Of a stretch of DNA of 36,209 bases, positions 17,749 through 36,209 are shown one piece after another. A program made the translations under genes and the position numbers. Origin of the DNA: Candidatus Sulfotelmatobacter sp. (lineage in GTDB: Bacteria > Acidobacteriota > Terriglobia > Terriglobales > Acidobacteriaceae); NCBI GenBank assembly GCA_017883385.1, contig JADGNQ010000046.1:1-36209 (forward strand). The letters run 5' to 3'. Positions within the stretch are counted from its first letter, which is position 1. Every line of letters begins with the position of its first letter. Below the pieces are notes generated by a model. That model did not search any database. It had not been told where the DNA came from and saw only the letters and a program-made list of their open reading frames with translations.

Positions 17749-17753
17749 CGCCG

Positions 17754-18953: not shown

Positions 18954-19036
18954 CAAGTAAACGAATCTGAATGTCGTTGATCAACCTCAGCTCTGGAGTC
19001 ACCTGCTAACACAACCCATTCAAGGGTTTCAAAACA

Positions 19037-19726: not shown

Positions 19727-19746
19727 GTATCTTGCAAACACTGATC

Positions 19747-20661: not shown

Positions 20662-20747
20662 GCGTCCCCCAGCACGCGATTCCAGCGCTTGTCTTGATTC
20701 CTGCCTATCTTCAGTACGGCGCCCGCCTTCCGCTTCTGCAATCCTAA

Positions 20748-21653
20748 ATGTCTGCCACAATAAGACACATCAACGTGTGCGCGTGTACCTACAAGCGGCC
20801 TGAGATGCTAAGGCGCTTACTGGAAGCACTCTCCTGCCAGGAGACCGGTGGACAGTTCACGTATTCGATTGTGATTGTGGACAACGATCACTTGCGGTCC
20901 GCCGAGGCGGTTGTCTCTGCCTTTGCTACCCAGTCCTCAGTTTCTACCAAGTATTGCTCAGAGCCCCGCCAGGGAATCGCGCTCGCCCGGAACAGGGCCG
21001 TCGAAAACACAACCGGAGACTTTGTCGCCTTCATCGATGATGACGAGTTTCCGATCAAGTCCTGGCTGCTGACTTTGTTGAACACTCTGGACGAGCACAG
21101 AGTTGATGGCGTGCTTGGACCGGTGAGGCCGCACTTCGACGCTGCGCCTCCGAAGTGGGTCATCGAAGGCAAATTCCACGACCGTCCAGAAGACAAGACC
21201 GGTCACATCCTCGACTGGGGAAAGTGCCGGACTGGAAATGTGTTGCTGAAGCGTGAACTCTTCTCGCTGGAAGCTCCAGCGTTCCGGCCCGAGTGCCTTT
21301 CAGGCGAAGACCAGGATTTTTTCCGGCGAATGATTGGAAAGAGCCGCGTATTTATTTGGTGCAACGAGGCCGTAGTATACGAAGTCGTCCCACCGGGACG
21401 TTGGACGCGCAGTTTTCTGGTGCGGCGGGCGTTGTTTCGCGGGGTGTTCTCACTGCGCAACTACGGCTTCCCCCTGAAGCGAATCGTGCAATCCGTCATT
21501 GCCGTTCCAGCCTATGCGGTTGCCTTGCCGGTCGCGCTGCTCTTAGGACAGCCCCGGTTCATGGGATGTGTGTTCAAGTTGTCCTATCATCTGGGAAGGC
21601 TCCTCGCACTCGTAGGTGTCGACCCGATTGGGCAGCCCTACGTTACCGACTAG
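20748..21653 (+). CDS. Glycosyltransferase family 2
   Basis: A 301-residue GT2 enzyme. The donor-binding start is INVCACTYKRPEMLRRLLEAL, then YSIVIVDNDHLRS. A signature ARNRAVENTTGDFVAFIDDDEFP holds the DxD-type metal site. GEDQDFFRRM carries the likely catalytic Glu-Asp pair. A hydrophobic C-terminal region (VIAVPAYAVALPVALLLGQ) suggests membrane association. The sequence differs clearly from the GT2 encoded just upstream, so the two probably add different sugars. The 86-base gap before it contains no evident signal, and the ATG lacks a strong ribosome binding site. Confidence 0.9.
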   Translation: MSATIRHINVCACTYKRPEMLRRLLEALSCQETGGQFTYSIVIVDNDHLRSAEAVVSAFATQSSVSTKYCSEPRQGIALARNRAVENTTGDFVAFIDDDEFPIKSWLLTLLNTLDEHRVDGVLGPVRPHFDAAPPKWVIEGKFHDRPEDKTGHILDWGKCRTGNVLLKRELFSLEAPAFRPECLSGEDQDFFRRMIGKSRVFIWCNEAVVYEVVPPGRWTRSFLVRRALFRGVFSLRNYGFPLKRIVQSVIAVPAYAVALPVALLLGQPRFMGCVFKLSYHLGRLLALVGVDPIGQPYVTD

Positions 21654-21683
21654 CTGAGACCTGCAGCCGAAATCGCACTTAGA

Positions 21684-22748
21684 ATGATTGCCATGACAGA
21701 AAACACCATCGAGATCAGCGTCAATGGAAAGTGGACGAAGGTTCCCGCGTTAGAGGTTAACGGGAAGACAATTCTCGTTCGCGGAACCTGGCTCAAGGTG
21801 GCTGCCGTCCACGATGAAGACTGGGCGGAAACGGAACTGGAAGACCCGGCGCTGTGTGTGCGGCAACTGAAGGAGAAGAAATCGTCTGGATTGCGCGCCG
21901 ATCTTTTCACGTTCGCGCAGAAACTACCCGCCACGCAGCCAAACTATGACTATCCGATGGAATGGGACAGCCTCGCTGTGGCTCGCACCGCCAGCTTCAA
22001 AGGATGGTGGGAGAGTCTGCCGCAGGAGACCCGCAAGAACGTGAGGCGATCCCAGAAACGGGGCGTGCAAGTCGCGGTCAAGCCGTTCGGTGACGAAATC
22101 ATCCGAGATCTGGTGGAGTTGAACAATGAGTCTCCTATGAGGCAGGGGAGGCCAAACAACCACTACGGAAAAACGTTCGAGCAGGTGAAGAGAGACTATT
22201 CGTCATTTCTGGATAGAAGTGACTTGATCGGCGCGTACGTCGGAGACGAATTAATTGGCCTGGTGAAGATCATTTATCGTGGACAGATTGCCTCCGTCTT
22301 GCAGTGCCTGTCCAAAGGGAGCCACTACGATAAAAGGCCGTCCAACGCCATGCTGGCGAAGGCGGTTGAGCTTTGCGAGGCGAGGGGGATTTCTCACCTC
22401 ACCTACGGAATGTTCCGCCATGGCAACAAGCGCGACAATCCTTTACTCGAATTCAAAATTCGCAACGGTTTTGAAGAGATGCTGGTGCCGCGATTCTATG
22501 TTCCGTTGACGCAATGGGGAGCATTCTGCCAAAGAACAAATTTGCATCGCGGTCTTCTCGGAATTCTTCCGCATCAAGTGATCACGTTGGGCGTTCGCGC
22601 CCGATCGCGATGGTACAATTTTAAGCAGTCGAAAAGCCGGTGTAGCTCAATCGCAGAGCGGCCGAATTGTGATCGGCAGACGGAGCGTTCAAATCCTCCC
22701 GCCGGCTCCAACCTTCAGGATGTTCCATCCTCTCCCCGCAGTCGGTAG
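21684..22748 (+). CDS. GNAT/FemAB-like acyltransferase whose 3' end reads through a tRNA-like sequence
   Basis: A 354-residue product. The core (about 95-290) has FemAB/GNAT-like features: a basic RKNVRRSQKRGVQV segment, the LIGAYVGDELIGLVKIIYRG strands, and the GISHLTYGMFRHGNKRDNPLLEFKIRNGFEEM helix-strand region. It may acylate an EPS sugar. The recognisable protein ends near RARSRWYNFKQ. The last 38 or so residues (SKSRCSSIAERPNCDRQTERSN...) translate a tRNA-like sequence and are very unlikely to be part of the family. A TAA in the next frame sits at that boundary (22621-22623 region), so a small frameshift may have removed the original stop. ATG 21693 is an alternative start; neither has a clear ribosome binding site. 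Confidence 0.75.
   Translation: MIAMTENTIEISVNGKWTKVPALEVNGKTILVRGTWLKVAAVHDEDWAETELEDPALCVRQLKEKKSSGLRADLFTFAQKLPATQPNYDYPMEWDSLAVARTASFKGWWESLPQETRKNVRRSQKRGVQVAVKPFGDEIIRDLVELNNESPMRQGRPNNHYGKTFEQVKRDYSSFLDRSDLIGAYVGDELIGLVKIIYRGQIASVLQCLSKGSHYDKRPSNAMLAKAVELCEARGISHLTYGMFRHGNKRDNPLLEFKIRNGFEEMLVPRFYVPLTQWGAFCQRTNLHRGLLGILPHQVITLGVRARSRWYNFKQSKSRCSSIAERPNCDRQTERSNPPAGSNLQDVPSSPRSR
22636..22710 (+). tRNA. tRNA-Thr(UGU)-like sequence, degenerate, overlapping the upstream CDS
   Basis: A 75-base cloverleaf with an encoded CCA end. The seven-pair acceptor stem (GCCGGTG with CGCCGGC, one G-T) and the four-pair D stem (GCTC/GAGC) are intact. The five-pair anticodon stem (GCCGA/TCGGC) closes the loop ATTGTGA. 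By position the anticodon is TGT (Thr), and the first two acceptor pairs, G-C and C-G, fit threonine identity. GTG (His) is present one base on, but a His tRNA would need an extra 5' G and C73. Defects: the D loop lacks the GG pair, position 37 is G, and the T stem GAGCG/CCTCC has two mismatches and one wobble, although TTCAAAT is kept. It is either a decaying tRNA gene or an unusual functional one. Confidence 0.55.
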
Positions 22749-22777
22749 TCCCTCGCTTCCGGTGAAACTGAACTGAT

Positions 22778-24616
22778 ATGCCAGGAATTGTTGGTCTCAT
22801 TACCAAAATGCCCCGTGAGTGGGCGGAGCCGCGGCTATTGCGGATGGTTGAGACCCTTCGCCACGAGTCTTTTTACGAAACAGGGACCTGGATCGACGAA
22901 AATTTGGGAGTCTACGTCGGGTGGATCGCGCGCAAGAAATCCTTCTCCGACGGCATGCCTCTGCGCAACGAACAAGGGGACATCGTTCTGATCTTCTCCG
23001 GCGAGGAATATCCGGAACCGGGAACCGCGAGTGGCCTCAGACAGCGCGGACACAGTTTTGACGCTAGCGGCCCCTCGTATCTGGTTCACCTCAGCGAAGA
23101 TGGCCCGGCATTTCCCGCCGGACTCAACGGAAGATTTCACGGGCTCCTCGTCGACCGCAAAGGCGGCACAGCAACGCTGTTCAACGATCGCTACGGAATG
23201 CATCGCCTTTACTACACCGAATCCAAGGAAGCCTTCTACTTCGCCGCGGAAGCGAAGGCGATTCTCGCGATCTGTCCCGAACTTCGAACGGTGAACCAGC
23301 AGAGCCTTGGGGAGTTCATCGCCTGTGGCTGCGTATTGGAGAATCGAACCCTCTTTGCAGGCATCCAGGTCCTGCCGACCGCGTCAACTTGGTCGTTTCG
23401 CAACGGCTCACTCGAACAGAAGGCTAGCTATTTTCATCCCCGGGAATGGGAAGATCAGACGCCTTTGGATCCTGAAGCCTACTATCGGGAGTTCCAACAG
23501 GTCTTTGCTCGAAATCTTCCACGATACTTCGATGGTCAGGAGCGCGTCGGTTTGTCACTCACCGGCGGGCTCGATACTCGAATGATACTGGCCTGGCACA
23601 AGGCAGCCCCGAACACGCTCCCGTGTTACACGTTTGGCGGGACGGTGCATGATTGCCAGGACGTGATCGTATCGCGCCAAGTGGCGCGCGCCTGCCATCA
23701 GCCTCATCAGGTCATACCCATCGGAGACGACTTCCTTTCGCGTTTTTCTCACTACGCTGAGCGTGTGGTGTATCTAAGCGACGGATGTACGCGCGTCAAC
23801 CGCAGCGCTGATTTGTATGCGAATGAGAAGGCTCGCGAGATCGCTCCGGCCAGGATGACAGGAAACTACGGCAGCGAGGTATTACGCTGGGTTCCCGCCT
23901 TCAAACCGTCGAGGCCTGCGCCCGGGCTTTTCTCTCCGGAACTCGCCTCTTCCGTTCGAGCCGCCGGCGATACCTACGCGAAAGTGCTTCAAGGACATCC
24001 GGTGTCCTTTGCCGTTTTTCGGCAGGCTCCATGGCATCACTACCCGCTGCTTGGGCTCGAACAGACACAGCTCGCAATGCGCACGCCGTTCCTTGACAAC
24101 CAGTTGGTTCGAACCGTCTTCCGCGCTCCGGATCCCGGCATCGCGACGAACGGACCAGTCAACAGCGATGTCTGCCTGCGCCTGATCGCCGATGGCGATC
24201 CCGCCCTGCGTGGGATTCGTACCGACCGCGGCCTCGGTGGAAACGGTGGAGCAGTTTCCGCATTCGCCCGGCATCGTTTCCTCGAGTTTACGTCCAAAGC
24301 GGAATACGCTTATGACTCCGGGATGCCGCAGTGGTTGGCGCGGGCCGATCACTTCGTCTCGCCGCTCCATCTCGAACGCGTCTTTCTAGGAAGACATAAG
24401 TTCAGTCATTTTCGCGTATGGTATCGGGATGCGCTCTCCCGGTACGTAAAGGAGACGCTGCTCGATCCACGCGCCCTTTCCCGGCCGTACTTGCAGGGGA
24501 AACAGCTTGAGACGCTGGTGCAAGGTCATGTCAGGGGAGATCGAAACTACACTAACGAGATCCATTTGGCGCTGACGTTGGAACTCATACACCGCCTGTT
24601 TGTCGATTCGGAATGA
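22778..24616 (+). CDS. Asparagine-synthase-like protein lacking the glutaminase nucleophile
   Basis: A 612-residue protein with the AsnB plan. The N-terminal class II amidotransferase-like domain (about 1-200) starts MPGIVGL where active enzymes have MCGI, so the nucleophilic Cys2 is Pro and glutamine hydrolysis should be lost. It still has LNGRFHGLLVDRKGGTATLFNDRYGMHRLYY. The C-terminal synthetase domain contains the ATP-pyrophosphatase motif LTGGLDTRMI (about 263-272) and a later MRTPFLDNQLV segment, as in AsnB. Such proteins are frequent in exosortase-type EPS loci, where amidation of uronic acids has been proposed. This one would need ammonia, a separate amidotransferase, or another amine donor. 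Its ATG is 29 bases after the previous stop. Confidence 0.9.
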   Translation: MPGIVGLITKMPREWAEPRLLRMVETLRHESFYETGTWIDENLGVYVGWIARKKSFSDGMPLRNEQGDIVLIFSGEEYPEPGTASGLRQRGHSFDASGPSYLVHLSEDGPAFPAGLNGRFHGLLVDRKGGTATLFNDRYGMHRLYYTESKEAFYFAAEAKAILAICPELRTVNQQSLGEFIACGCVLENRTLFAGIQVLPTASTWSFRNGSLEQKASYFHPREWEDQTPLDPEAYYREFQQVFARNLPRYFDGQERVGLSLTGGLDTRMILAWHKAAPNTLPCYTFGGTVHDCQDVIVSRQVARACHQPHQVIPIGDDFLSRFSHYAERVVYLSDGCTRVNRSADLYANEKAREIAPARMTGNYGSEVLRWVPAFKPSRPAPGLFSPELASSVRAAGDTYAKVLQGHPVSFAVFRQAPWHHYPLLGLEQTQLAMRTPFLDNQLVRTVFRAPDPGIATNGPVNSDVCLRLIADGDPALRGIRTDRGLGGNGGAVSAFARHRFLEFTSKAEYAYDSGMPQWLARADHFVSPLHLERVFLGRHKFSHFRVWYRDALSRYVKETLLDPRALSRPYLQGKQLETLVQGHVRGDRNYTNEIHLALTLELIHRLFVDSE

Positions 24617-24656
24617 GCTGGATCCGCTCGTCGGAAATGTTCACAGGAAATCAATA

Positions 24657-26048
24657 ATGTCCGCGAAGCTTGCTACTCTCCTGTTCGCCATCGGGATCGC
24701 AGGACTCTTCGTCCTCGATCGCGATCGCAAGGGGCGAACTTCGCGCGCGCTTTGGATCCCCGTGATATGGCTTACCATCGCCGGGTCCCGCATGGCGTCG
24801 CAGTGGATGTCAGCGATCAGTTCGGGCTCGATGAGTCATTACTCAGCTGAACAGATCCGAGACGGTAACCCTTTTGACCGCAACTTTCTTACGGTACTCC
24901 TCTTGATCGGAGTCGGCGTCCTGATCAGCCGAGGGCGGAAAGTCACAACACTGTTGCGGGCAAACGGCGCACTGATCTTGTTTTTCGTTTACTGCGGAGT
25001 TAGCACGCTCTGGTCTGACTACAGCGACGTGTCGTTCAAGAGGTGGATCAAGGCCTTGGGCGACCTGACCATGGTGCTGCTGGTCCTGACCGATCTAGAC
25101 CCGTCCGCTGCGGTCAAGCATCTGTTGGCGCGTGTGGGCTTTCTTCTGCTGCCAGCGTCGATTCTTCTGAGCAAGTACTACACCGCTCTGGGGCGCGGGT
25201 TTGGAGAAGGTGGCGAGGCCCTATACACCGGTGTTACCACTAGCAAGAACGAGTTGGGAGGTATCTGCCTTCTGTTCGGACTTGGGGCTGTCTGGCGTCT
25301 TTGCCGGCGTTTTCGAGGCGAGGCGAACCGTGAAGGCACCGGCCCTCTCATCACGAACGGCGTGCTTCTCCTGATGGTGGTCTGGATCTTCGTAAAGGCC
25401 CAGACGATGACCGCGTTGGCCTGCTTTCTCATGGCTAGCACCATACTCGTCGTCACCTGCTTTCCCAGTCTTTATCGCAGACGCTGGCTGGTCCACGGGT
25501 TGGTCGCTGCCATGCTGTTAGTTTCGCTATCGGCGCTGTTTCTTGGGGTCGGTTCAGGCCTGTTGACGACGATGGGAAAAGACGCGACCCTCACGGGCCG
25601 AACTGCAGTGTGGGACCTCGTGCTAAGCCTTGGGCAAAACCCGTTGATTGGAACCGGCTTCGAGAGTTTCTGGCTCGGTCCACGCCTCGACAAGATTTGG
25701 AGCGTGTACTGGTGGCATCCCAATGAGGCTCACAATGGGTACATCGAAGTGTTCTTGAATCTGGGGTGGATCGGTGTGGGCCTGCTCGGCGTGCTGATGG
25801 TGAAGGGGTATCGAACCGTAATCGCTGGGTTGCGCCGGGATCCGGACTCGACCGGCCTTCGCCTGGCATTTTTTCTGGTGGCGGTAGCTTACAACTTCAC
25901 TGAATCTGCTGTCCGGATCATGCACCCGGTGTGGATCATATTCCTTCTGGCGACGATCACCGTACCCGGCGGTTGGGTACGCATGCCGAAGAAGGTCGTG
26001 GTGAGCAAAGCCAGCCCGGAACCAGTTCCCTGTCTGGAGTCCGCTTGA
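24657..26048 (+). CDS. O-antigen ligase / Wzy-like polysaccharide polymerase
   Basis: A 463-residue inner-membrane protein with about ten or more hydrophobic segments. The Wzy_C-type region is recognisable in LTGRTAVWDLVLSLGQNPLIGTGFESFW, then WHPNEAHNGYIEVFLNLGWIGVGLLG. It carries the periplasmic Arg and His typical of ligases and polymerases that transfer glycans from undecaprenyl pyrophosphate. With the Wzx-like flippase next door and the split Wzc upstream, a polymerase role is more likely than LPS ligation, but the family does not separate the two by sequence. AGGAAA precedes ATG 24657; the upstream start at 24600 would overlap the asparagine-synthase gene. Its stop overlaps the next start. 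Confidence 0.9.
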   Translation: MSAKLATLLFAIGIAGLFVLDRDRKGRTSRALWIPVIWLTIAGSRMASQWMSAISSGSMSHYSAEQIRDGNPFDRNFLTVLLLIGVGVLISRGRKVTTLLRANGALILFFVYCGVSTLWSDYSDVSFKRWIKALGDLTMVLLVLTDLDPSAAVKHLLARVGFLLLPASILLSKYYTALGRGFGEGGEALYTGVTTSKNELGGICLLFGLGAVWRLCRRFRGEANREGTGPLITNGVLLLMVVWIFVKAQTMTALACFLMASTILVVTCFPSLYRRRWLVHGLVAAMLLVSLSALFLGVGSGLLTTMGKDATLTGRTAVWDLVLSLGQNPLIGTGFESFWLGPRLDKIWSVYWWHPNEAHNGYIEVFLNLGWIGVGLLGVLMVKGYRTVIAGLRRDPDSTGLRLAFFLVAVAYNFTESAVRIMHPVWIIFLLATITVPGGWVRMPKKVVVSKASPEPVPCLESA

Positions 26049-27637
26049 AGCCGTTTGACGCCAGTGGATCCTTCCAGCTTCCTGTAGAGGGAGGCGGATT
26101 GCGGCGCCTTGCTGTGCGCGGCGCCGGAGTGACGGTGCTTTTCAGCGGGTTGAGTTTCTCGGTCCAGATGATCGGCACCATGGTTCTGGCTCGAATCTTG
26201 ACGCCCGGGGACTACGGCCTCGTCACCATGGTTACGACCTTCAGCCTGCTTCTCATGAACTTTGGGTTGAACGGGTTTACGGAAGCGGTGCTGCAGCGGG
26301 ACGAAATCGATGAGGCGCTGGCCAGCAATCTGTTCTGGATCAACATCTCTGTGGGCCTTCTGCTGACCATCGGATTTGCTGCAGCGGGGACGCTGCTGGC
26401 GAAGTTCTACCACGAACCGCGGGTGGCGCATGTCGCGGTCGCTATGTCGGCGACGATCTTCGTCACCAGCGCGTCCGTCCTGCACTTAGCCTTGCTCAAG
26501 CGTGCCATGTGTTTCTCTGTTGTCTCCTTCAATGAGATCCTCTCTCGAACAGCCTCAGTCGTGATATCAATTCTCCTCGGCTGGGCGGGCTGGAGATACT
26601 GGGCGCTGGTTGCGGGGGCGGTGGCTCTGCCGTTAACCGTGTCTGTTATGGCGTGGATCGCGTGTCGATGGATACCGAGCCGGCCCCGGCGGGTGGACGG
26701 CATGAGCCCGATGGTGAGGTTTGCGACCGTCGTCTACGCCCGCTTCAGCCTCAACTATTCCACGCGGAACGTGGATAACTTGCTGGTGGGCTGGCGTTTC
26801 GGCACACCCGCTCTGGGCTTTTACAAGAAGGCCTACGACATTTTCGTCCTGCCTTCGAATCAACTCGTATCAAACATCGCCGAGGTCGTAATATCGGCCC
26901 TGAGCCGTTGCAAGCGGGACCCAGTCCGGTACCGGAGGTACTTTCTCGGCGGCTTGTCGGTACTTGCTTTCGTCGGCATGGGTCTGGGCGCGGACCTGAC
27001 ACTGGTGGGCAAAGACCTCATCCGCCTGTTACTCGGGCCGCGTTGGGGAGTGGCCGGCAAGATCTTCACTTTCTTCGGTCCCGGAATCGGGATCATGCTC
27101 GTCTATTACACTCACGGCTGGATTCACCTTTCTACCGGGAGAGCGGACCGCTGGTTTCGCTGGGGAGTATTCGAGATCGCGGTGACCATCTCGCTATTTA
27201 TCGTGGCCCTGCATTGGGGACCAACGGGCGTAGCCGCCGCTTGGACCGCATCGTTCTGGATCCTGTGCGTGCCCGCATTCTGGTATGCGGGAAAGCCCAT
27301 ACAATTTGGCGTCGGACTGGTCATCGGCACGGTGTGGAGGTATGCGCTGGCATCGTTGCTGGCGGGCATTGCCTGTGCCTGGATCGTGTCCACAATCCAC
27401 CTCCCATTCGCGTCAGACGCGACCGCGGCGGCCGCCTTCGCTCGCATAGTGACCGACTCCGTTTTGCTATTTACTCTCTACATCGGCGCTGTGGTTGGCT
27501 TGCATGGGGGATGGGAGCCTCTCCGTCAGATAGCGCGGCTCTTGCCTGATCTGATGCCCGGCCGACGGCCGGTCTTCGAGAGTCCTCAAGAGGAACTGGC
27601 AACCGTTGGAGTTTCCGGCGGCGAGTCAATTGACTAG
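26045..27637 (+). CDS. Wzx-type polysaccharide flippase (MOP/PST family)
   Basis: A 530-residue membrane protein with about 12-14 hydrophobic segments. The start region LAVRGAGVTVLFSGLSFSVQMIGTMVLARILTPGDYGLVTMV is a clear PST/Wzx opening. FSLNYSTRNVDNLLVGWRFGTPALGFYKKAYDIFVLP is the second signature. It would move the lipid-linked repeat unit across the inner membrane. I chose TTG 26045, which overlaps the TGA of the polymerase gene as TTGA and has a GGAG five bases upstream. This implies translational coupling of polymerase and flippase. An ATG at 25931 is in frame but lies well inside the polymerase gene. The next gene starts 70 bases later. Confidence 0.92.
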   Translation: MKPFDASGSFQLPVEGGGLRRLAVRGAGVTVLFSGLSFSVQMIGTMVLARILTPGDYGLVTMVTTFSLLLMNFGLNGFTEAVLQRDEIDEALASNLFWINISVGLLLTIGFAAAGTLLAKFYHEPRVAHVAVAMSATIFVTSASVLHLALLKRAMCFSVVSFNEILSRTASVVISILLGWAGWRYWALVAGAVALPLTVSVMAWIACRWIPSRPRRVDGMSPMVRFATVVYARFSLNYSTRNVDNLLVGWRFGTPALGFYKKAYDIFVLPSNQLVSNIAEVVISALSRCKRDPVRYRRYFLGGLSVLAFVGMGLGADLTLVGKDLIRLLLGPRWGVAGKIFTFFGPGIGIMLVYYTHGWIHLSTGRADRWFRWGVFEIAVTISLFIVALHWGPTGVAAAWTASFWILCVPAFWYAGKPIQFGVGLVIGTVWRYALASLLAGIACAWIVSTIHLPFASDATAAAAFARIVTDSVLLFTLYIGAVVGLHGGWEPLRQIARLLPDLMPGRRPVFESPQEELATVGVSGGESID

Positions 27638-27707
27638 GGTTGGCTCGACTCAACAGCAACAGAACAGAATAGATTCGCTGACTTCATCGGAGCGGGAAAA
27701 AGGTTCA

Positions 27708-29597
27708 ATGTCACTTCCGGCGAGAATACACGGCTTCTACCAGAGGAAGGCTGCAGGTCTTCTGTTCCGAAGACAGTTCGCGATACGTCCGCAGCAACCT
27801 CTGATCTCGTTTACGTTCGACGATTTTCCGCGATCGGCCTTATTGACTGGTGGCCGCATTCTGAACCAGCGTGGCTTCGCAGCCACGTACTATGCCGCTC
27901 TTGGGCTCGCAGGTAAGGAGGCACCCAGCGGCCAAATGTTTTTTACTGACGACCTGGCGACGCTTTTTGACCAGGGACACGAGCTGGGATGCCATACATT
28001 TTCACACTACAATTCGTGGGAAACGGAAACGGGAACGTTTGAGAATTCGATCATCGAGAATAGCGCCGCACTCAACAGATTGTTCCCCGGTACCGAATTC
28101 AAGAGCTTTTCCTACCCCATCAGTTTGCCTCGACCATTGACCAAAGCGAAGGTCGCCGACTATTTCCTAAGCTGCCGCGCCGGTGGCCAGACACTCAATG
28201 TTGGAACGGCAGACCTGAACCAGCTTTCGGCTTTCTTTCTGGAGCAGAGCCGGAATGATATCCAAGCTGTCAAAGACATCATCGACCGCAACCGGCAAAG
28301 TCGCGGCTGGCTCATCTTTGCCACACACGACATCTCCGACAATCCGACTCCATTTGGATGCACCCCGGAATTCTTCGAGCAGGTGGTTGAGTACGCGGCT
28401 AACTCAGGCGCTCGCATACTCCCCGTGCTTCACGCCCTGGGAGAGCTCGATGCCCCGGGTTGCCGGCAAACCTCGAAAGCCCCAAGTCTGGTTTCCGAGG
28501 CAAGATCGTCCTCCTTGCGGTCGTCCTCGAAACCTTTGGTGTCGATTCTCATTCCCGCTTACAACGCGCAGGAATGGATCTCTGAAACGCTTCGCTCCGC
28601 ACTGGCTCAGACGTGGGAACCCAAGGAAATCATCGTCGTCGACGATGGCTCTACCGATCAAACTCTGGCCATCGCCCGCCAGTTTGAGTCGGATGCCCTC
28701 CACGTCGTCTCACAGCAGAACCAGGGTGCGGCAGCAGCCCGAAACACAGCCTTGTCTCGCAGTAAGGGGCAGTACATTCAGTGGCTGGATGCCGACGATC
28801 TTCTGGCGCCCGACAAGATCCTCAGGCAGATCGAAGCGGTGGACCCGTCTCATCGCAAGCGGACCCTTCTGGCTTCCCCATTCGGACAATTCATGTACCG
28901 GTGGTATCAGGCAAAATTTGTTCCGTCTGCATTGTGGACCGATCTGTCTCCCACAGAATGGCTGCTGCGGAAGATGGGACAGAATCTTTTTATGCAAACC
29001 GCCACATGGCTGGTCAGTCGCGAGTTAACTGATGCTGCCGGCTCGTGGGACACCCGGCTGCGCGGGAATGATGACGACGGCGAATACTTCTGCCGCGTGC
29101 TTCTCGCCAGTGATGGCGTACAGTTCGTTCCAGACGCAAGAGTCTACTACCGCGTGTTCGGTTACGACAGCTTGAGCTACATCGGAGCATCCGATTTGAA
29201 GCGCGAGGCCCTATGGCTTTCCATGCAGATGCACGTCGGCTATCTAAGGTCGTTGGAGGACAGTCCAAGAACTCGAGCTGCCTGCGTTGACTATCTGCAA
29301 CGAAACTTGTTCTATTTCTACCCCAATCGCCCTGACATTACCAAGGAAGCGCAGCAGCTAGCCAAGGACCTGGGCGGAGAGTTGGGCGTTCCACACCTAT
29401 CGTGGGAATACTCGTGCATAAAGTCGGTGATCGGATGGAGGCGGACCAAGCAGCTAGCCATGGATTTGCGCACGCTCCGTAAGTCGCTGAACAAGGTCGT
29501 AGACAGGACGTTGTTTTCGTTCGATAGCCGAATGCACGCGGTTCGCCCGGCCATTACAAAAGAGAGAGTCTTGCTAGCCGCAAATAGAACAACCTAG
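27708..29597 (+). CDS. Polysaccharide deacetylase (CE4)-glycosyltransferase family 2 fusion
   Basis: A 629-residue two-enzyme protein. The CE4 domain (about 30-255) has the metal/catalytic motif TFDD (D38, D39), the histidine box HTFSH (H96, H100) and a late FATHD segment with a further histidine. After a Ser-rich linker (about 255-278) the GT2 domain runs to about 500. It has VSILIPAYNAQEWISETLRSAL, IIVVDDGSTDQT, GAAAARNTAL and the DxD site LDADDLL. No signal peptide is visible, so both domains should be cytoplasmic and act on nucleotide- or lipid-linked precursors, unlike most secreted CE4 enzymes. It could deacetylate an N-acetylhexosamine and add another sugar to the same intermediate. 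AAAAAGG before ATG 27708 decides the start. Confidence 0.92.
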   Translation: MSLPARIHGFYQRKAAGLLFRRQFAIRPQQPLISFTFDDFPRSALLTGGRILNQRGFAATYYAALGLAGKEAPSGQMFFTDDLATLFDQGHELGCHTFSHYNSWETETGTFENSIIENSAALNRLFPGTEFKSFSYPISLPRPLTKAKVADYFLSCRAGGQTLNVGTADLNQLSAFFLEQSRNDIQAVKDIIDRNRQSRGWLIFATHDISDNPTPFGCTPEFFEQVVEYAANSGARILPVLHALGELDAPGCRQTSKAPSLVSEARSSSLRSSSKPLVSILIPAYNAQEWISETLRSALAQTWEPKEIIVVDDGSTDQTLAIARQFESDALHVVSQQNQGAAAARNTALSRSKGQYIQWLDADDLLAPDKILRQIEAVDPSHRKRTLLASPFGQFMYRWYQAKFVPSALWTDLSPTEWLLRKMGQNLFMQTATWLVSRELTDAAGSWDTRLRGNDDDGEYFCRVLLASDGVQFVPDARVYYRVFGYDSLSYIGASDLKREALWLSMQMHVGYLRSLEDSPRTRAACVDYLQRNLFYFYPNRPDITKEAQQLAKDLGGELGVPHLSWEYSCIKSVIGWRRTKQLAMDLRTLRKSLNKVVDRTLFSFDSRMHAVRPAITKERVLLAANRTT

Positions 29598-29815
29598 TCA
29601 CCAGCTTCGCTTCGGACAGTTGTTGGCACACTCCATGCCGCGACGGGTCTATCGGCAGCTCCAAGGGCCATGACCGAACGGCCCACAACCATTGAGTTTC
29701 CATGTCGGGAAAGATGCACCTCCGTGTCTTGAGAGCACCCTTGCCTGGGCTTAAAGTCTTTGGGTAGGCACCCTTAGCGTTATTAGGCCAGAATCAAGAG
29801 CCATGGCGAGGTAGA
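29598..29815. other. Intergenic region with sigma-54-like promoter
   Basis: This 218-base gap separates the long synthesis block from the secreted beta-helix gene. Apart from the -24/-12 element described separately, I see only a GAGG ribosome binding site four bases before ATG 29816. No terminator follows the deacetylase fusion gene. Confidence 0.5.
29624..29638 (+). promoter_or_regulatory. Sigma-54 (-24/-12) promoter candidate
   Basis: TGGCAC at 29624-29629, a five-base spacer and ATGC at 29635-29638 place the GG and GC dinucleotides exactly ten bases apart. The consensus is TGGCAC-N5-TTGC, so only one position of the -12 element differs. Transcription would start near 29650, leaving a leader of about 165 bases before the beta-helix gene. 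A sigma-54-type AAA+ regulator is encoded at 7516-9030, although its GAFTGA loop is altered. Confidence 0.6.
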
Positions 29816-31762
29816 ATGACACGAAATATTCGATTTTTCTTCCCCCTATTTTTGCTCTGTCTTTGTACCTATTCCTCGGCACAGAACTGGTCCGGAGTTC
29901 TTGCCCCAACGAGAGCGATCGACTGGAGTCAGGCGGGTGCAGGAGCGATTCCTCCGCGATCTACAAACTGTACAACGCTCAATCCTGGAGTCACGGCGGC
30001 ACAGATTAACAGCGCCATCACAAGCTGCGGTTCCGGTCAGACTGTGTTCCTGAATGCCGGAACGTACAACCTTTCGGGCGGGATCGTCCTGATCAACAAA
30101 TCGAACGTTACGCTTCGCGGAGCGGGAGCCGATAAGACCCTTCTTGTCTTCAGCGCTGGAGGAACCGGGGGTCTCGTTTACGTCGGCAACGCCGACACCG
30201 ACTACTCCGACGGTCCCAGCAACGTAGCGACGTGGACAAGCGGCTATGCGGCAGGGGCAACGTCGATTACCCTGGGGTCGCTAAGCCTGGGCAGCATCGG
30301 GAATCTCCACGTGGGCAGTCTGCTGATTCTTGATCAACTCGACGACGCCAGCGATACGGGGAACATCTACGTTTGTCAGAGCTCCGGCTCGAATGGCACT
30401 TGTTCCCAAGAGGGAAGTTCCCATAATGGGAGAGCCGGGAGATCGCAAAACCAGCAAGTGATCGTTACATCCATTTCGGGAAGCGGTCCGTGGACGATTG
30501 GCATTACCCCTGGACTCTACGCACCAAACTGGCGTAGTTCGCAGACGCCGGGTGCGTGGTTTTCAAGCGCCCTTCCGGTCACGGGCATAGGTTTTGAGGA
30601 TTTTTCCGTGGACGCGCGCGCCGTTTCTAATGTGAACAGCGGCATCTTCTATTTTCAAAACGTGGCATATAGCTGGATCAAGGGTGTGCGCAGCGTCAAC
30701 AGCACGGGCGGAAGCGCGTTGCACAAGCATGTTTGGCTGTATCAGTCTTCCCACGTGACGGTCCGTGACAGCTATTTTTATGGCGCGGGTGGTGCCTCGG
30801 AGTCTTATGGCGTCGACTCGGCCTACAGCAGTTCTGACAACCTGATCGAGAACAACGTATTCCAGCACATTGCAACCGCGACCATCCGGGAAGGCGATGC
30901 CGGGTCGGTATTCGGTTACAACTATGCGGTGGACAATTTCTACACGGCGGGTGGTGGCGATTGGCAGCAAGGCGACGCCTACAGCCACGCCATGGGCGAC
31001 CATGGATTGTGGGAAGGAAACATAGGCTCGGAACTGGAGCTCGACGACATCCATGGAACGAGCTTCATGTACACCGCGTTTCGCAATTACTGGACAGGGC
31101 TGGATACCGGTGGCAATAAGTCAGCCCAGACAGTCCCAGTTCAAATCTACGCGGGAAGCCGCTATGTGAATCTGGTGGGGAACGTTCTGGGCAAACCGGG
31201 ATACCACTCGGTCTATCAAACGGCTGCCGCTAGCGCAACCGATTGCGGCAGCATGGCCAACGGAAATGTCTCCATCTATGACATTGGATACTCCAGTGAA
31301 ATGGGTACACGGTTTGCGCCGTTGGGAACCTGCGGCAGCGGACTGGGCGCTAATTTCCTGATTAACGACGACACAGTGGCGGTCAGTTCGCTGATGCGGT
31401 GGGGCAACTATGACACTGTCAATGCCACAAGTCGCTTCTCGAGCGCGGAGGTTCCGACCGGCATTAGCCCTTATGGAAACCCCCTGCCCGCAAGTCAGAC
31501 CTTGCCGAGTTCGTTCTATCTGAACGGGAAGCCGGGTTGGTGGGGAAGCAGCGTCCCCTGGCCTGCGATTGGACCAGACGTAACCGGAGGGACTGGACCG
31601 GGCGGCCATGCGTACCTTACGCCCGCAGCGGCTTGCTACTTGAACGTGATGTCCGGCAAAACAGATGGCACCAGCGGACCTCTGACGTTCAGCGCAGACA
31701 GTTGCTATGCCTCCGGCACAATCGTGGTGCCGCCGAGCGGCCTAACGGCTGTGGTTCAGTGA
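29816..31762 (+). CDS. Secreted right-handed beta-helix protein (pectate-lyase-like fold)
   Basis: A 648-residue exported protein with a signal peptide (cleavage after CTYSSA, about residue 22). Residues about 50-110 (VTAAQINSAITSCGSGQTVFLNAGTYNLSGGIVL read in parts) match the start of pectate-lyase-like beta helices. Helix-turn repeats follow: NVTLRGAGADKTLLVF, VTVRDSYFYGAGGAS and DNLIENNVFQHIATATI. Proteins of this fold cut or epimerise acidic polysaccharides or bind glycans. The position after the EPS block suggests that it trims, modifies or releases the polymer outside the inner membrane. Catalytic residues cannot be assigned without alignment. It has its own sigma-54-like promoter and a terminator, so it is probably a separate unit. 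No PEP-CTERM tail is present. Confidence 0.82.
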   Translation: MTRNIRFFFPLFLLCLCTYSSAQNWSGVLAPTRAIDWSQAGAGAIPPRSTNCTTLNPGVTAAQINSAITSCGSGQTVFLNAGTYNLSGGIVLINKSNVTLRGAGADKTLLVFSAGGTGGLVYVGNADTDYSDGPSNVATWTSGYAAGATSITLGSLSLGSIGNLHVGSLLILDQLDDASDTGNIYVCQSSGSNGTCSQEGSSHNGRAGRSQNQQVIVTSISGSGPWTIGITPGLYAPNWRSSQTPGAWFSSALPVTGIGFEDFSVDARAVSNVNSGIFYFQNVAYSWIKGVRSVNSTGGSALHKHVWLYQSSHVTVRDSYFYGAGGASESYGVDSAYSSSDNLIENNVFQHIATATIREGDAGSVFGYNYAVDNFYTAGGGDWQQGDAYSHAMGDHGLWEGNIGSELELDDIHGTSFMYTAFRNYWTGLDTGGNKSAQTVPVQIYAGSRYVNLVGNVLGKPGYHSVYQTAAASATDCGSMANGNVSIYDIGYSSEMGTRFAPLGTCGSGLGANFLINDDTVAVSSLMRWGNYDTVNATSRFSSAEVPTGISPYGNPLPASQTLPSSFYLNGKPGWWGSSVPWPAIGPDVTGGTGPGGHAYLTPAAACYLNVMSGKTDGTSGPLTFSADSCYASGTIVVPPSGLTAVVQ

Positions 31763-32075: not shown

Positions 32076-33350
32076 ATGAAAATCTGTGATGTAGCGATTA
32101 TTGGAGCTGGCCCTTATGGGCTGTCTATTGCGGCCCATCTCAGGGCACGCGGCGTCGATTTCCGTATCTTCGGCAGCCCGATGAAAACCTGGCTCACGCA
32201 TATGCCGAAGGGCATGCACTTGAAATCGGAGGGCTTTGCCTCCTCCCTGTATGATCCTGGTTCGACTTTCACATTGGGCGCTTACTGCAAGGAGCAAGGA
32301 CTCCCGTATGCCGACATCGGAACTCCGGTCCCTCTCGAGACGTTTTGTGCCTACGGCCTCGAGTTCCAGAAGAGGTTTGTGCCTGATCTGGAAGACCAAT
32401 GGGTCGCTTCGCTGCAACAATCAGGCGCGGGCTTCCAGGTAACGCTGGGGAACGGTGAGGTGTTCAACGCGCGCCGAATCGTGGTCGCGGTTGGGTTGAC
32501 CCACTATGACTATGTCCCGCCCGAGTTGGCGGCGCTTCCGCTGGCGTATATGACCCACGCCTCAAAACACTCCGCGCTCGATTATTTCCAGGGAAAGGAA
32601 GTCGCGGTCGTCGGAGCAGGAGCCTCGGCCCTTGACCTGGCTGCCCTACTTCATCAAGCTGGCGCGTCTGTTCAAGTCGTGGCCCGCGTCGCCAAGATCC
32701 GCTTCCATGATCCGCCGGACAACATCAATCCGTCGTGGCTCGACCGATTGCGCTCGCCAGTAACCGGGATCGGCCCGGGGTGGAAGCTGGCCCTGTGCAC
32801 CTACGCGCCGCTCGTCTTCCGCTTGATGCCCGACCAATTTCGAGTCGAGAAGGTGCGCACCGTTCTCGGCCCGGCGCCTTGCTGGTTCATCAAAGAGCAA
32901 GTGGTTGGGAAAGTGGGATTCAACGTCGGGGTTACGATCGCGAAGGCTGATGTACAGAATGGCCGCGTCCACCTTGAGCTAGCCGACAGTACAGGTGCAA
33001 AAAAGACGCTGACGGCCGATCACGTAATCGCGGCCACCGGGTACAAGCCCGACCTGAGACGGCTACCCTTTCTGGGTCCCGAGATCCTGTCCGGCGTTCG
33101 GTGCGTCGAAAACACACCGTACCTCTCCTCGCATTTTGAGTCATCCGTGCCGAACCTATACTTCGTCGGCATTACTGCAGCGAATACTTTCGGCCCCCTG
33201 CTGCGATTCGCCTACGGCGCCGGATTCGTGGCTCCCCGAATCGCCAGGCACCTGGCGCGATCGGCTTCTCGCAATCTGGTGAAGCGCGAGCTCGTGTCGA
33301 ACTCAGGATCCACCGCGCCGCGTGAAACCGCGGAACCGGTGGCGAGGTAA
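32076..33350 (+). CDS. FAD-dependent NAD(P)-linked oxidoreductase (flavin monooxygenase-like)
   Basis: A 424-residue soluble flavoprotein with two Rossmann motifs. The first is VAIIGAGPYGLSIAAHL near the N-terminus (GAGPYG at 10-15) for FAD. The second, VAVVGAGASALDLAALL, lies at about residue 175 for NAD(P)H. A later ATGYKPDLRRLPFLG matches the ATG-Y motif shared by flavin monooxygenases and N-hydroxylating enzymes. The end GITAANTFGPLLRFAYGAGF is also typical of this group. It could hydroxylate or oxidise a small amine-, thiol- or sugar-containing molecule; the substrate is unknown. ATG 32076 follows GGAGAG at good spacing; the GTG at 32064 overlaps that site. It heads a run of same-strand genes with an ATP-grasp ligase and a Cys-rich protein. 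Confidence 0.88.
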   Translation: MKICDVAIIGAGPYGLSIAAHLRARGVDFRIFGSPMKTWLTHMPKGMHLKSEGFASSLYDPGSTFTLGAYCKEQGLPYADIGTPVPLETFCAYGLEFQKRFVPDLEDQWVASLQQSGAGFQVTLGNGEVFNARRIVVAVGLTHYDYVPPELAALPLAYMTHASKHSALDYFQGKEVAVVGAGASALDLAALLHQAGASVQVVARVAKIRFHDPPDNINPSWLDRLRSPVTGIGPGWKLALCTYAPLVFRLMPDQFRVEKVRTVLGPAPCWFIKEQVVGKVGFNVGVTIAKADVQNGRVHLELADSTGAKKTLTADHVIAATGYKPDLRRLPFLGPEILSGVRCVENTPYLSSHFESSVPNLYFVGITAANTFGPLLRFAYGAGFVAPRIARHLARSASRNLVKRELVSNSGSTAPRETAEPVAR

Positions 33351-33438
33351 CTTCAACCGTTCTGTCATGAATCTCCCCCTCAGACGAAACGAGCTCCAGA
33401 TAGAGCGGGCCCTGATGTCATGAGATGGAGTCTACAAA

Positions 33439-34761
33439 ATGAATAGCCCTAAATCGGAAGCCCCGGCCGTTGCGGCCCCAAAGGTTCTGCTCACCGATAC
33501 CAACCGGTGGGCCTTGTCGGCCCGACTCGCAATCAGTCTGTCCCAGGCCGGCTGTGAGGTTTCGGCCATCTGTCCTGTACCGGGTCACGCCCTGCTGAAA
33601 ACCCGGGCCGTGCAGCGTACGTACGGTTACAGTGGCCTCCGTCCGCTCGAATCGTTGACCGCGGCCATCGAGGCTGTCGATCCCGATGTCGTCATCCCCT
33701 GCTGCGATCGGAGTGTGGGACATCTTCACGAGTTGTATGCAAGCGCTCAAAGCCGGGAAGGCGCGAATAGCAAACTGGCGGCGCTGATTGCGCGGTCGCT
33801 GGGTTCGCCCGCGAGCCACGCCACGGTTTCGTCACGCTATGACCTGCTCGCTCTGGCCCGCGAAGAGGGAATTCGAGTACCCCACACGGCGCACGTTAAT
33901 ACTCCTGAGGAACTCGCTGTATGGCAGTCACAGGAAAATTTCCCCTGGGTATTGAAGGCGGATGGAACCTGGGGCGGCTGCGGCGTCAAGATGATCCACA
34001 GGCCAGGACAGATTCAACAATCCTTCGCGGAACTAAACCGGGTATTTGGTTTCAAGCAGGCCATCAAGCGGCTCTTGATGAATCGCGACTCCTTCTGGCT
34101 GCGGCCCTGGCAGAGTCACTCCAAACACAGTTTTGTCGCCCAGTCCTACATTCACGGCCGTCCTGCGAACTGCGGCGTGATCTGCTGGAAAGGGCGGGTT
34201 CTGGCGGGCAGCGCCGTCGAAGTGGTCATCTCCGAAGGGGTGACCGGGCCCGCGGGCATCGTCCGCGTCGTCAACAGCCGCGACATGATGTTCGCGGCCG
34301 AGCGCATCGCCTGCCGTCTGGATCTGTCGGGATTCTTCGGTCTCGATTTCATGATCGAAGAGGGCACCGGCACCGCCTATCTCATCGAAATGAATCCACG
34401 CTGCACCCCGCTGAGTCATTTGCGATTGGGCACCGGAAGAGACATGCCGGCCGCTCTCTGGGCGGAACTCGCGGGTCAACCGCTGCCCACAACCGAGCCG
34501 GTGACTCGAAAAGATATGATTGCCTATTTCCCGCAGGCAACCGACGTGAGCAGCGAGTTGCTGGAGTTGAGCTTTCAGGATGTCCCGAAAGATGAGCCAG
34601 AACTGATTCAAGCGCTACTGCATCCGTGGTCCGAGCGCAGTCTGGTCGGTCGCGTTGTGGACTCGCTGCGCGGGTCGAAAGAGAAAGTAGCGCTATCGCC
34701 GTGCTGTGTTTTCCCCGAGGCCGTAGCGGCGCCAGCGGTTTCTGAAACCTCAAAAGTGTGA
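33439..34761 (+). CDS. ATP-grasp carboxylate-amine ligase-like protein
   Basis: A 440-residue cytoplasmic protein. The N-terminal third has a Rossmann-like preATP-grasp region (KVLLTDTNRWALSARLAISLSQAGCEVSAI) and DPDVVIPCCDRSV. The ATP-grasp core includes FPWVLKADGTWGGCGVKMI, with a nucleotide-contacting lysine and a glycine-rich loop. Metal-binding residues are in FFGLDFMIEEGTGTAYLIEMNPRCTPLSHLRLG (Glu and Asn of IEMNPR). Family members join a carboxylate to an amine, thiol or other nucleophile through an acyl phosphate. Substrates here are unknown. It follows the oxidoreductase after 88 bases and precedes the Cys-rich repeat protein by 30 bases, so a shared pathway is likely. Confidence 0.88.
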   Translation: MNSPKSEAPAVAAPKVLLTDTNRWALSARLAISLSQAGCEVSAICPVPGHALLKTRAVQRTYGYSGLRPLESLTAAIEAVDPDVVIPCCDRSVGHLHELYASAQSREGANSKLAALIARSLGSPASHATVSSRYDLLALAREEGIRVPHTAHVNTPEELAVWQSQENFPWVLKADGTWGGCGVKMIHRPGQIQQSFAELNRVFGFKQAIKRLLMNRDSFWLRPWQSHSKHSFVAQSYIHGRPANCGVICWKGRVLAGSAVEVVISEGVTGPAGIVRVVNSRDMMFAAERIACRLDLSGFFGLDFMIEEGTGTAYLIEMNPRCTPLSHLRLGTGRDMPAALWAELAGQPLPTTEPVTRKDMIAYFPQATDVSSELLELSFQDVPKDEPELIQALLHPWSERSLVGRVVDSLRGSKEKVALSPCCVFPEAVAAPAVSETSKV

Positions 34762-34791
34762 ACCTGAAACTCATGAGCGAATACGAGAGAT

Positions 34792-35907
34792 ATGAAGAGT
34801 AACAATAACCTGCACGTCGGTGACTGGGTGGAAGTCCGAAGCAAGGAGGAAATCCTGCGGACTCTCGACTCCGACGGGCGGCTCGACGGAATGCCCTTCA
34901 TGCCCGAGATGCTCAAATTTTGCGGGCAGCGATTCCGGGTCTACAAGAGCGCGCACAAGACCTGCGACTATACGACGCCTTATCCCTACCACATGCGGCG
35001 GCTCGCAGGAACTGTGCATTTGGAAACACGCTGTGACGGAGAGGCGCATGGTGGGTGTCAGGCAGGCTGCCTGCTCTACTGGAAAGAGGTGTGGCTGAAA
35101 CCAGCCAACGGGAATCTCGCCGCGTTGAGCACTGAGGTTGGAGGATCGCTGGCCGCCGGGTCCACAGCACGATGCACCAGCTCCGAGGTCGCAGCTCACA
35201 CCCAGATATCCGATCCCGATGGTGGGCCACCAACGTACGTCTGCCAGGCCACGCAAGTACCGCATGCCACGAAACCTCTTGCCTGGTGGGACCTGCGTCA
35301 ATATCTTCAGGACTACTGGTCGGGAAACGTAGGTCTCGAACGCATTTTCAGTGGCTTGACCTACTCGACCTTCTACCACCTCAGCCAGGCCGGGATTGGA
35401 CTAGGGCCTGCGATGCGCTGGTTCTATAACAAGTTCCATCGCTTGTGGGGAGGCACTCTGTATCCCAGGACCCCGGGATTGATCCCTGAGGGCAAGCCCA
35501 CGCCGACGGGGCCCCAGAACCTGCAACCGGGTGAACTGGTCCGCGTGAAGTCGCACGAGGAGATCCTGAAATCCGTCGACAGCAGCAACCGCAATCGAGG
35601 AATGTACTGGGACGCAGAACTGGTGCCATACTGCGGTGGAACGTATCGGGTCCTGAAGCGTGTCACCAAACTTATCGATGAGAAGACCGCAAAGATGGTG
35701 GAGATGAAGACCCCCTGCATCATCCTGGATTCGGTGGTGTGTCAGGCTCGATATAGCTCGTGCCGCATGCTCTGCCCCAAGGCGATGTATCCGTACTGGC
35801 GGGAAATTTGGCTGGAGCGGGTTGAGAAGGTTGAGAAGAATGACACCGGTGTTTCCGATACCGGTTCGGCGGCGGAGACGACAACTGTGTCGTCATGTCA
35901 GCATTAA
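34792..35907 (+). CDS. Uncharacterised protein with two Cys-rich repeats
   Basis: A 371-residue protein with no signal peptide or obvious membrane helix. It has two copies of one domain, at about 9-103 and 246-342. Both start with a beta-like G-(D/E)-x-V-x-V-(R/K)-S-x-E-E-I-L and then a (F/Y)-C-G-x-x-(F/Y)-R-V segment. Both end with a cysteine cluster and W-(K/R)-E-(V/I)-W-L. Copy 1 cysteines are 44, 58, 81, 89 and 93; copy 2 cysteines are 281, 309, 317, 324 and 328. The C-x3-C ending (89/93; 324/328) and the spaced partners suggest a metal or Fe-S site. Between the copies lies a linker with a hydrophobic, Trp-rich part. I recognise the domain as recurring in uncharacterised bacterial proteins but know no function. 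It follows the ATP-grasp gene by 30 bases. Confidence 0.8.
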   Translation: MKSNNNLHVGDWVEVRSKEEILRTLDSDGRLDGMPFMPEMLKFCGQRFRVYKSAHKTCDYTTPYPYHMRRLAGTVHLETRCDGEAHGGCQAGCLLYWKEVWLKPANGNLAALSTEVGGSLAAGSTARCTSSEVAAHTQISDPDGGPPTYVCQATQVPHATKPLAWWDLRQYLQDYWSGNVGLERIFSGLTYSTFYHLSQAGIGLGPAMRWFYNKFHRLWGGTLYPRTPGLIPEGKPTPTGPQNLQPGELVRVKSHEEILKSVDSSNRNRGMYWDAELVPYCGGTYRVLKRVTKLIDEKTAKMVEMKTPCIILDSVVCQARYSSCRMLCPKAMYPYWREIWLERVEKVEKNDTGVSDTGSAAETTTVSSCQH

Positions 35908-35946: not shown

Positions 35947-36209
35947 ATGCGTTTCGCGGAGACCGAAGTCGTCGGAGCAAAGGTGATCGATCCTGCGCCG
36001 CACCAGGATGATCGCGGACGTTTCATGCGAGCGTGGTGTGCCAAAGAATTCGAGGAGAACAGGATCCACTTTGTGCCGGTCCAGGCGAACATGGGATTGA
36101 GCGTGCGTAAAGGCACGGTCCGTGGAATGCATTTTCAGGAAGCGCCCGCCCTTGAGGCCAAACTGGTCCGCTGCACCCGGGGAGCGATGTTCGATGTAGT
36201 GCTTGACCT
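35947..36209 (+). CDS. rfbC: dTDP-4-dehydrorhamnose 3,5-epimerase, N-terminal part (cut by window edge)
   Basis: The first 87 codons of an RmlC-type cupin. It shows the family's DDRGRFMRAW segment (about 21-30), the VPVQANMGLSVRKGTVRGMHFQ region with the catalytic-site histidine in RGMHFQ, and AKLVRCTRGAMFDVVLD at the window end. The enzyme makes dTDP-4-keto-L-rhamnose for rhamnose-containing polysaccharides. Alternatively it belongs to a related sugar 3,5-epimerase branch, since only a fragment is visible. The presence of an rfb gene suggests that the EPS region continues to the right. It begins 39 bases after the Cys-rich gene, with GAGG some way upstream. Confidence 0.88.
   Translation, partial: MRFAETEVVGAKVIDPAPHQDDRGRFMRAWCAKEFEENRIHFVPVQANMGLSVRKGTVRGMHFQEAPALEAKLVRCTRGAMFDVVLD

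What the first reader, a model, noticed from the sequence alone, without database searches (positions are those of the whole stretch)
32076..35907. Candidate undescribed pathway: flavoprotein + ATP-grasp ligase + two-repeat Cys-rich protein
Three adjacent same-strand genes combine an oxidase or hydroxylase, an acyl-phosphate-forming ligase and a protein of unknown function with two cysteine-rich repeats. None of the three is a standard EPS biosynthesis enzyme. Oxidation plus ligation beside a possible metal- or thiol-bearing protein suggests synthesis of a small molecule or a modified polymer substituent. The gene order is seen directly; the pathway is inference.
Basis: partly seen in the sequence, partly recalled or inferred. 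Interest (0 to 1): 0.7.

Follow-up and report, generated by a model that had tools for sequence, protein, structure and literature searches.

The report
Flavoprotein–ligase pair in exopolysaccharide locus
Two of the three genes (a flavin enzyme and an ATP-using ligase) are a recurring pair of unknown function in soil Acidobacteria, here inside a sugar-polymer gene cluster where they may add a decoration to the polymer; the third, cysteine-rich gene belongs to a separate, widespread, unnamed protein family.

Summary
The three same-strand genes are real: FAD (32076-33350), an NAD(P)H/FAD flavoprotein; GRASP (33439-34761), an ATP-grasp ligase; CYS (34792-35907), two homologous SH3-like repeats with 13 cysteines. 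They close an XrtA/PEP-CTERM-like exopolysaccharide (EPS) locus.

FAD and GRASP are a conserved pair. Of 73 GRASP loci from 397 order genomes, 35 have FAD within 5 kb, 32 of these within 500 bp (23 divergent, 9 co-directional). In the eight closest GRASP loci, the window included, FAD is always directly upstream. CYS is no part of the pair: it is in 5 of those 73 stretches, in varying positions. CYS has at least 7,987 relatives in many phyla, often beside nucleotide-sugar and glycosyltransferase genes.

Co-directional pairs like the window's lie in glycan loci (8 of 9, strict count); divergent pairs mostly do not (4 of 23). Best explanation: an EPS tailoring cassette in which GRASP attaches an acyl, perhaps amino-acid-type, group and FAD oxidises it or its acceptor. 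The chemistry is inferred. An aspartate kinase follows GRASP in 11 of 73 loci, but in none of the 32 close FAD pairs. A two-enzyme unit is supported; a three-gene pathway is not.

The parts
32076..33350 (+). FAD: two-dinucleotide-binding flavoprotein, 424 aa from ATG 32076 (GTG 32064 also possible); FAD motif GAGPYG, NAD(P)H motif GAGASA, ATGY motif; class B monooxygenase / YpdA-like superfamily
33439..34761 (+). GRASP: ATP-grasp ligase, 440 aa; predicted ATP-grasp fold; K173, K210, D303, E317 and N319 (EMN motif) invariant in an alignment of 48
34792..35907 (+). CYS: 371 aa, two homologous SH3-like repeats (about residues 5-106 and 240-346) joined by a helical linker; C81-x4-H86-x2-C89-x3-C93 and C151 invariant in 32 of 32 aligned sequences; no Pfam/NCBIfam family at E<=0.001
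35947..36209 (+). start of an RmlC-type (dTDP-4-dehydrorhamnose 3,5-epimerase-like) gene, cut by the contig end; in the relative L003 a nucleotide-sugar block (RmlC-GT-RfbF-DRL-RfbG-amine oxidase-PIG-L-Wzx) follows
6890..31762 (+). EPS locus upstream: UpxY antiterminator, export protein, chain-length protein, tyrosine autokinase, sugar phosphotransferase, FemAB-like proteins, glycosyltransferases, Asn-synthase-like amidotransferase, Wzy, Wzx, deacetylase-GT fusion (27606-29597), weakly beta-helix-like protein (29816-31762)

Best explanation
FAD and GRASP are a conserved two-enzyme cassette; in the window's form (FAD directly upstream of GRASP, same strand) it is a tailoring cassette of exopolysaccharide (EPS) loci of Terriglobales. 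Shown: both genes, their families, their recurrent adjacency, and the glycan setting of the co-directional form. Inferred: GRASP uses ATP to make an acyl phosphate of a carboxylate (amino-acid-type or a sugar acid) and joins it, as an amide, to a sugar precursor or repeat unit; FAD, with NAD(P)H, oxidises (for example N-hydroxylates) that building block or its acceptor. CYS is not a catalytic partner of the pair. It is a tandem SH3-like, probably metal- or thiol-dependent accessory (scaffold or binding) protein found in many nucleotide-sugar/EPS loci, and lies here because two EPS sub-modules abut.
For: Pairing: of 73 GRASP loci from 397 order genomes, 35 have FAD within 5 kb and 32 within 500 bp, 23 divergent and 9 co-directional. 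FAD is directly upstream in 8 of 8 GRASP loci of at least 400 bits, the window included. Contig lengths shared by the two top-120 lists: 26, against 0.6 at offset controls. Glycan setting of co-directional close pairs: 9 of 9 loose, 8 of 9 strict. Hints at an amino-acid-type substrate in the wider families: aspartate kinase directly downstream of GRASP in 11 of 73; FAD-MetY-MetA in L061, L066, L097, L099, L117; L-amino acid ligases among the top 20 fold matches of GRASP (4wd3, 3vot). CYS independence.
Against: 38 of 73 GRASP loci have no FAD within 5 kb (18 of the 73 stretches are under 15 kb, so some could lie beyond a contig end). The aspartate kinase is in none of the 32 close FAD pairs, in 9 of 38 loci without FAD and in 2 of 3 with FAD further off, so the amino-acid hint does not come from pairs like the window's. 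Of 23 divergent close pairs only 13 (loose) or 4 (strict) have glycan neighbours, and the pair in L062 has none among the markers tried. The fold search does not tell amino acid ligases from biotin carboxylase, carbamoyl-phosphate synthase or PurK. FAD is no closer to known monooxygenases than to YpdA-like reductases. There was no control of random genome stretches for the glycan counts; part of the loose list was named by eye after looking; related genomes are not independent.
Confidence: 0.45

Rival explanations
1. FAD, GRASP and CYS are one three-gene pathway making a small molecule or substituent, with CYS as metal- or thiol-bearing partner.
For: The three are adjacent in the window and in the relative L003 (82% identity for CYS), and occur together in L086, L061, L097 and L099. 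Of the 9 co-directional close pairs, 3 have CYS; of the 23 divergent ones none.
Against: CYS is in 5 of 73 GRASP stretches and moves: downstream of GRASP in the window and L003, four genes upstream of FAD in L086, about 5-8 kb from GRASP in L099 and L097, on the opposite strand in L061. FAD/GRASP are near 3 of 53 CYS loci. In the phylum sample 12 of 13 CYS-positive genomes lie outside the window's class, while all 6 GRASP-positive ones are in its family; in the class sample 4 of 11 GRASP-positive genomes are in other families.
Confidence: 0.12
2. FAD is a reductase of disulfides or other redox partners (YpdA / ferredoxin-NADP reductase-like), and the pair does a redox-dependent ligation unrelated to oxygenation.
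For: The best NCBIfam match is YpdA (68.8 bits, far under its cut-off 339.9); the best solved relatives are ferredoxin-NADP reductase-like and YpdA.
Against: It has an ATGY motif and a Lys_Orn_oxgnase match (54.9 bits, cut-off 21.3), typical of flavin monooxygenases (motif meaning recalled). At 424 aa it is about 108 aa longer than the YpdA model of 316.
Confidence: 0.25
3. The pair is a free-standing metabolic module (for example for an amino acid derivative) that is only sometimes recruited to EPS loci.
For: Of the 32 close pairs, 10 (all divergent) are among the 14 stretches without any glycan marker; the pair in L062 has no marker hit; one pair on a Granulicella tundricola plasmid lies among relaxase and toxin-antitoxin genes, with UbiA and glycosyltransferase family 8 genes beyond; MetA, MetY and aspartate kinase neighbours of the wider families.
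Against: All 9 co-directional close pairs, the window's included, have glycan-type neighbours; plasmid pACIX902 carries a divergent pair at the head of an EPS locus.
Confidence: 0.25

Closest known systems
Class B flavin monooxygenases / N-hydroxylases (Pfam PF13434, PF13738) and the YpdA/ferredoxin-NADP reductase group
   Same: Two Rossmann dinucleotide-binding motifs and an ATGY motif; Pfam matches above gathering cut-offs
   Different: None of the 25 best NCBIfam matches shown meets its cut-off; closest solved structure only at E 1.8e-10; recurrent genomic partner is an ATP-grasp ligase
ATP-grasp ligases: L-amino acid ligases (RizA 4wd3, B. licheniformis 3vot), carbamoyl-phosphate synthase, biotin carboxylase, PurK
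   Same: Predicted fold, invariant EMN / ATP-binding residues
   Different: No PDB sequence match at E<=0.001; 12-18% identity in the 50 fold matches listed; no NCBIfam cut-off met
Mind bomb SH3 repeat (PF18346) and nitrile hydratase beta-subunit SH3-like domain
   Different: The window protein is under Pfam's cut-off; invariant Cys/His motif; tandem arrangement in a bacterial protein
XrtA/PEP-CTERM-type EPS loci
   Same: Export, chain-length, kinase, FemAB, amidotransferase, ligase and sugar transferase genes upstream
   Different: All seven XrtA models hit are below their cut-offs; the FAD-GRASP-CYS end matches none of the named models

Membership tests
Class B flavin monooxygenase | FAD (GxGxxG) and NAD(P)H (GxGxxS/A) Rossmann motifs with a C-terminal ATGY-type motif (motif meaning recalled) | tested here: met
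   GxGPYG and GxGxSA invariant in 22 sequences; T321 and G322 invariant, Y323 in at least 90%
Class B flavin monooxygenase | oxygenation of a substrate | not testable with these tools
   sequence places it between monooxygenases and YpdA-like reductases
ATP-grasp superfamily | curated Pfam match and ATP-grasp fold with conserved ATP/metal residues | tested here: met
   PF02655 34.3 bits against cut-off 23.2; fold matches E down to 7.8e-17; K173, D303, E317, N319 invariant in 48
L-amino acid ligase | amino acid substrate | not testable with these tools
   fold search not discriminating; context suggestive only, and not from pairs like the window's
Mind bomb SH3 repeat PF18346 | Pfam gathering score 24 | tested here: not met
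   window protein 13.7 bits; 9 of 32 members hit at E<=1, best E 2.1e-4
Nitrile hydratase beta-like domain | shared fold over the domain | tested here: inconclusive
Three-gene FAD-GRASP-CYS system | the three families found together as a rule in other genomes | tested here: not met
   CYS in 5 of 73 GRASP stretches; FAD/GRASP near 3 of 53 CYS loci
FAD-GRASP gene pair | the two families adjacent in other genomes | tested here: met
   32 of 73 GRASP loci, the window among them, with FAD within 500 bp

The most novel reading that the evidence does not exclude
Acidobacteria decorate their EPS with amino-acid derivatives (in part aspartate-family, homoserine/homocysteine-like, possibly N- or S-oxygenated). 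GRASP-type ATP-grasp ligases attach them. Interchangeable partners supply or modify the group: dedicated aspartate kinases in some loci, MetA/MetY in others, FAD-type flavoproteins in the window's kind. CYS would be a new, very widespread tandem SH3-like metal-binding family serving glycan assembly.
Probability: 0.15. Interest if true: 0.65.

Novelty: new variant of a known kind. Interest (0 to 1): 0.4.

Why it matters
If right, the pair gives a genetic handle on how soil Acidobacteria chemically modify their EPS and makes one concrete prediction (an amide-bound, perhaps oxygenated substituent). CYS separately is a family of at least 7,987 database proteins; none of the 32 members scanned gave a convincing Pfam family, and the window member none in Pfam or NCBIfam, so naming and testing it would help annotate many glycan loci.

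Tried and rejected
Considered and rejected: a three-gene unit (CYS does not travel with the pair); thioredoxin reductase for FAD (weak match under the cut-off; that it lacks a CxxC redox pair is by eye); a curated function for GRASP (no NCBIfam cut-off met); an RNA element in the stretch (at gathering scores Rfam gave only a tRNA at 22636-22707); a sigma-70-type promoter in front of FAD (0 matches in 31500-36209, shuffles give 1.1; other promoter types are not covered). Nitrile hydratase as a functional lead for CYS: the fold score is weak and VIA aligns mostly the second repeat.

Led nowhere: eight paper searches. I saw listings only, read no paper, and saw in the titles and abstract starts nothing on this pair or on CYS; most subscription papers are not in that library. 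The Nonomuraea record has no annotation in the stretch. Model coordinates were not in the Python box, so spatial clustering of the cysteines was not tested. The first repeat and linker of CYS are barely covered in the VIA list; that is no evidence of a new fold.

Dropped rows and limits: alignment A1 has the window and 31 of 34 loci. L011 and L026 were left out because the matched stretch held a stop codon, L032 because it is partial. The CYS neighbourhood count left out 19 loci as duplicates or short re-fetches (L001, L037-L051, L053, L070, L072), leaving 53 with CYS, among them two contigs of the window's own genome; L086, L097 and L099 were fetched later through GRASP and are not in it. The FAD counts use a limit of 120 bits. 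The strict glycan count is two or more marker types over 40 bits (37 of 73). The loose count (59 of 73) adds gene clusters that I named partly by eye after looking.
Full report
What is there. The window is one whole contig (G000:C344) of a 6.8 Mb genome in 446 contigs. At its 3' end lie three complete genes on the + strand: 32076-33350, 33439-34761 and 34792-35907. They follow an EPS locus with UpxY antiterminator, export, chain-length, autokinase, sugar phosphotransferase, FemAB-like, glycosyltransferase, amidotransferase, Wzy, Wzx, deacetylase-GT and weakly beta-helix-like genes. Seven XrtA/PEP-CTERM models are hit, all below their cut-offs. After CYS an RmlC-type gene starts and is cut by the contig end. 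In the closest relative, L003 (82% identity for CYS; an Acidobacteriaceae MAG, probably the same contig as L088, since both are 119,185 bases), the order WZY-WZX-GTDEAC-PECT-FAD-GRASP-CYS-RmlC is the same, and GT-RfbF-DRL-RfbG-amine oxidase-PIG-L-Wzx follow.

Do the three belong together? In a class sample of 200 genomes CYS was found in 15, GRASP in 11 and FAD in 32 (E limits 1e-10, 1e-30, 1e-40). In a phylum sample of 297 genomes GRASP was in 6 and FAD in 4, all in the window's own family, while CYS was in 13, 12 of them outside the window's class (E limits 1e-30, 1e-60, 1e-10, with alignments as query for GRASP and CYS). In an order sample of 397 genomes GRASP was in 68, with 73 loci. I took up to 20 kb around 70 of these; the other three were the window, L064 and L065. 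In these 73, FAD lies within 5 kb in 35 and CYS anywhere in the stretch in 5. The FAD distance is at most 500 bp in 32: 23 divergent, 8 co-directional with FAD upstream, 1 co-directional with FAD downstream. By the genus column these 32 span 14 genera. The eight GRASP loci of at least 400 bits, the window included, all have FAD directly upstream on the same strand; three of the eight have CYS. A check on the top-120 database lists found 26 shared contig lengths for FAD and GRASP against 0.6 at offset controls, four besides the window for CYS and GRASP against 0.7, and none for CYS and FAD against 0.8 (contig length is only a proxy).

What CYS travels with. Of 53 CYS loci, a family-2 glycosyltransferase is within about 10 kb in 32, an RfbF-like nucleotidyltransferase in 25, PIG-L in 23, RmlC in 17, Wzx in 17, a C-methyltransferase in 15, and FAD or GRASP in 3. 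None of ten sugar markers is near 17 of the 53. The marker families were named by scanning representatives only. Annotated plasmid records: in Mesorhizobium ciceri pMc1284 a CYS homologue lies among PIG-L, sugar nucleotidyltransferase, rfbC, DUF4910 and glycosyltransferase genes, while in Bosea it stands beside one lipopolysaccharide-biosynthesis gene only. Some distant, shorter members stand elsewhere, for example beside a ScdA/hemerythrin-type protein in L074 and L075.

Setting and chemistry of the pair. On the strict count (two or more marker types) 37 of 73 GRASP stretches are glycan loci; on the loose count 59 of 73. Split by arrangement (loose/strict): co-directional close pairs 9 and 8 of 9; divergent close pairs 13 and 4 of 23; FAD further off 3 and 3 of 3; no FAD within 5 kb 34 and 22 of 38. 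So the window's own form is tied to glycan loci, the divergent form much less. In 11 of 73 GRASP loci (six genera) the gene directly downstream on the same strand is an aspartate kinase. Two of the 11 exceed the NCBIfam TIGR00657 cut-off, one other has the Pfam domains, and the rest rest on BLAST clustering and the KFGGTS motif. Nine of the 11 lie in the same EPS core block as the window's 5' part; the other two, L097 and L107, have FAD 3.9 and 2.7 kb away. None of the 32 close FAD pairs has it: FAD and aspartate kinase look like alternative partners of GRASP. In L061, L066, L097, L099 and L117 a FAD relative precedes MetY- and MetA-type genes. The L097 two are confirmed above cut-off; the others are named by clustering or by the start of the sequence. 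L061 also holds carrier-thioesterase, acyl-activating, acetolactate-synthase-like and aminotransferase genes. This hints at an amino-acid-type substrate for the wider GRASP/FAD families; for the window's own pair it is inference.

Verdict. I rate the pair a new variant of a known kind (polysaccharide tailoring) and the CYS family worth a name of its own.

Noticed in passing
window 22636-22710 (+): A tRNA-Thr (TGT) gene is predicted by ARAGORN (22636-22710) and by Rfam (22636-22707, 51.7 bits) inside the 3' end of the ORF 21684-22748, within the EPS locus.
   Followed up: partly
G000:C416 (L002): A second contig of the same genome starts inside a CYS copy (96% identical over residues 231-371) followed by RmlC and a glycosyltransferase: assembly break, strain variant or second copy.
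   Followed up: no
L093, L094, L097, L100, L102-L104, L107, L109, L112, L137: Aspartate kinase gene directly downstream of GRASP, in nine of these inside the EPS core block, and in none of the 32 close FAD-GRASP pairs.
   Followed up: yes
L061, L066, L097, L099, L117: FAD relative in front of MetY- and MetA-type genes; all five stretches also hold GRASP and three a distant CYS (L061, L097, L099). In L061 carrier-thioesterase, acyl-activating, acetolactate-synthase-like and aminotransferase genes are near: perhaps an undescribed biosynthetic cluster.
   Followed up: partly
L003:13024-17843: RfbF-like, DRL_cat/SAF-domain oxidoreductase, CDP-glucose 4,6-dehydratase (482.5 bits, above cut-off) and an amine-oxidase-like protein in a row; DRL-type proteins are near CYS in 9 of 53 loci, perhaps a branched CDP-sugar route.
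   Followed up: no
L052, L064, L067, L128: A UbiA prenyltransferase with a HAD-like N-terminal part lies near FAD or the FAD-GRASP pair; Pfam was run on the L067 protein only.
   Followed up: no
L074, L075: Short CYS homologues sit beside a ScdA/hemerythrin-type (iron-centre repair-like) gene, a hint at a metal link.
   Followed up: no
window 27606-29597: A polysaccharide deacetylase and a family-2 glycosyltransferase are fused in one ORF; in L052 a shorter deacetylase-like relative (255 aa) stands next to a separate glycosyltransferase gene.
   Followed up: no
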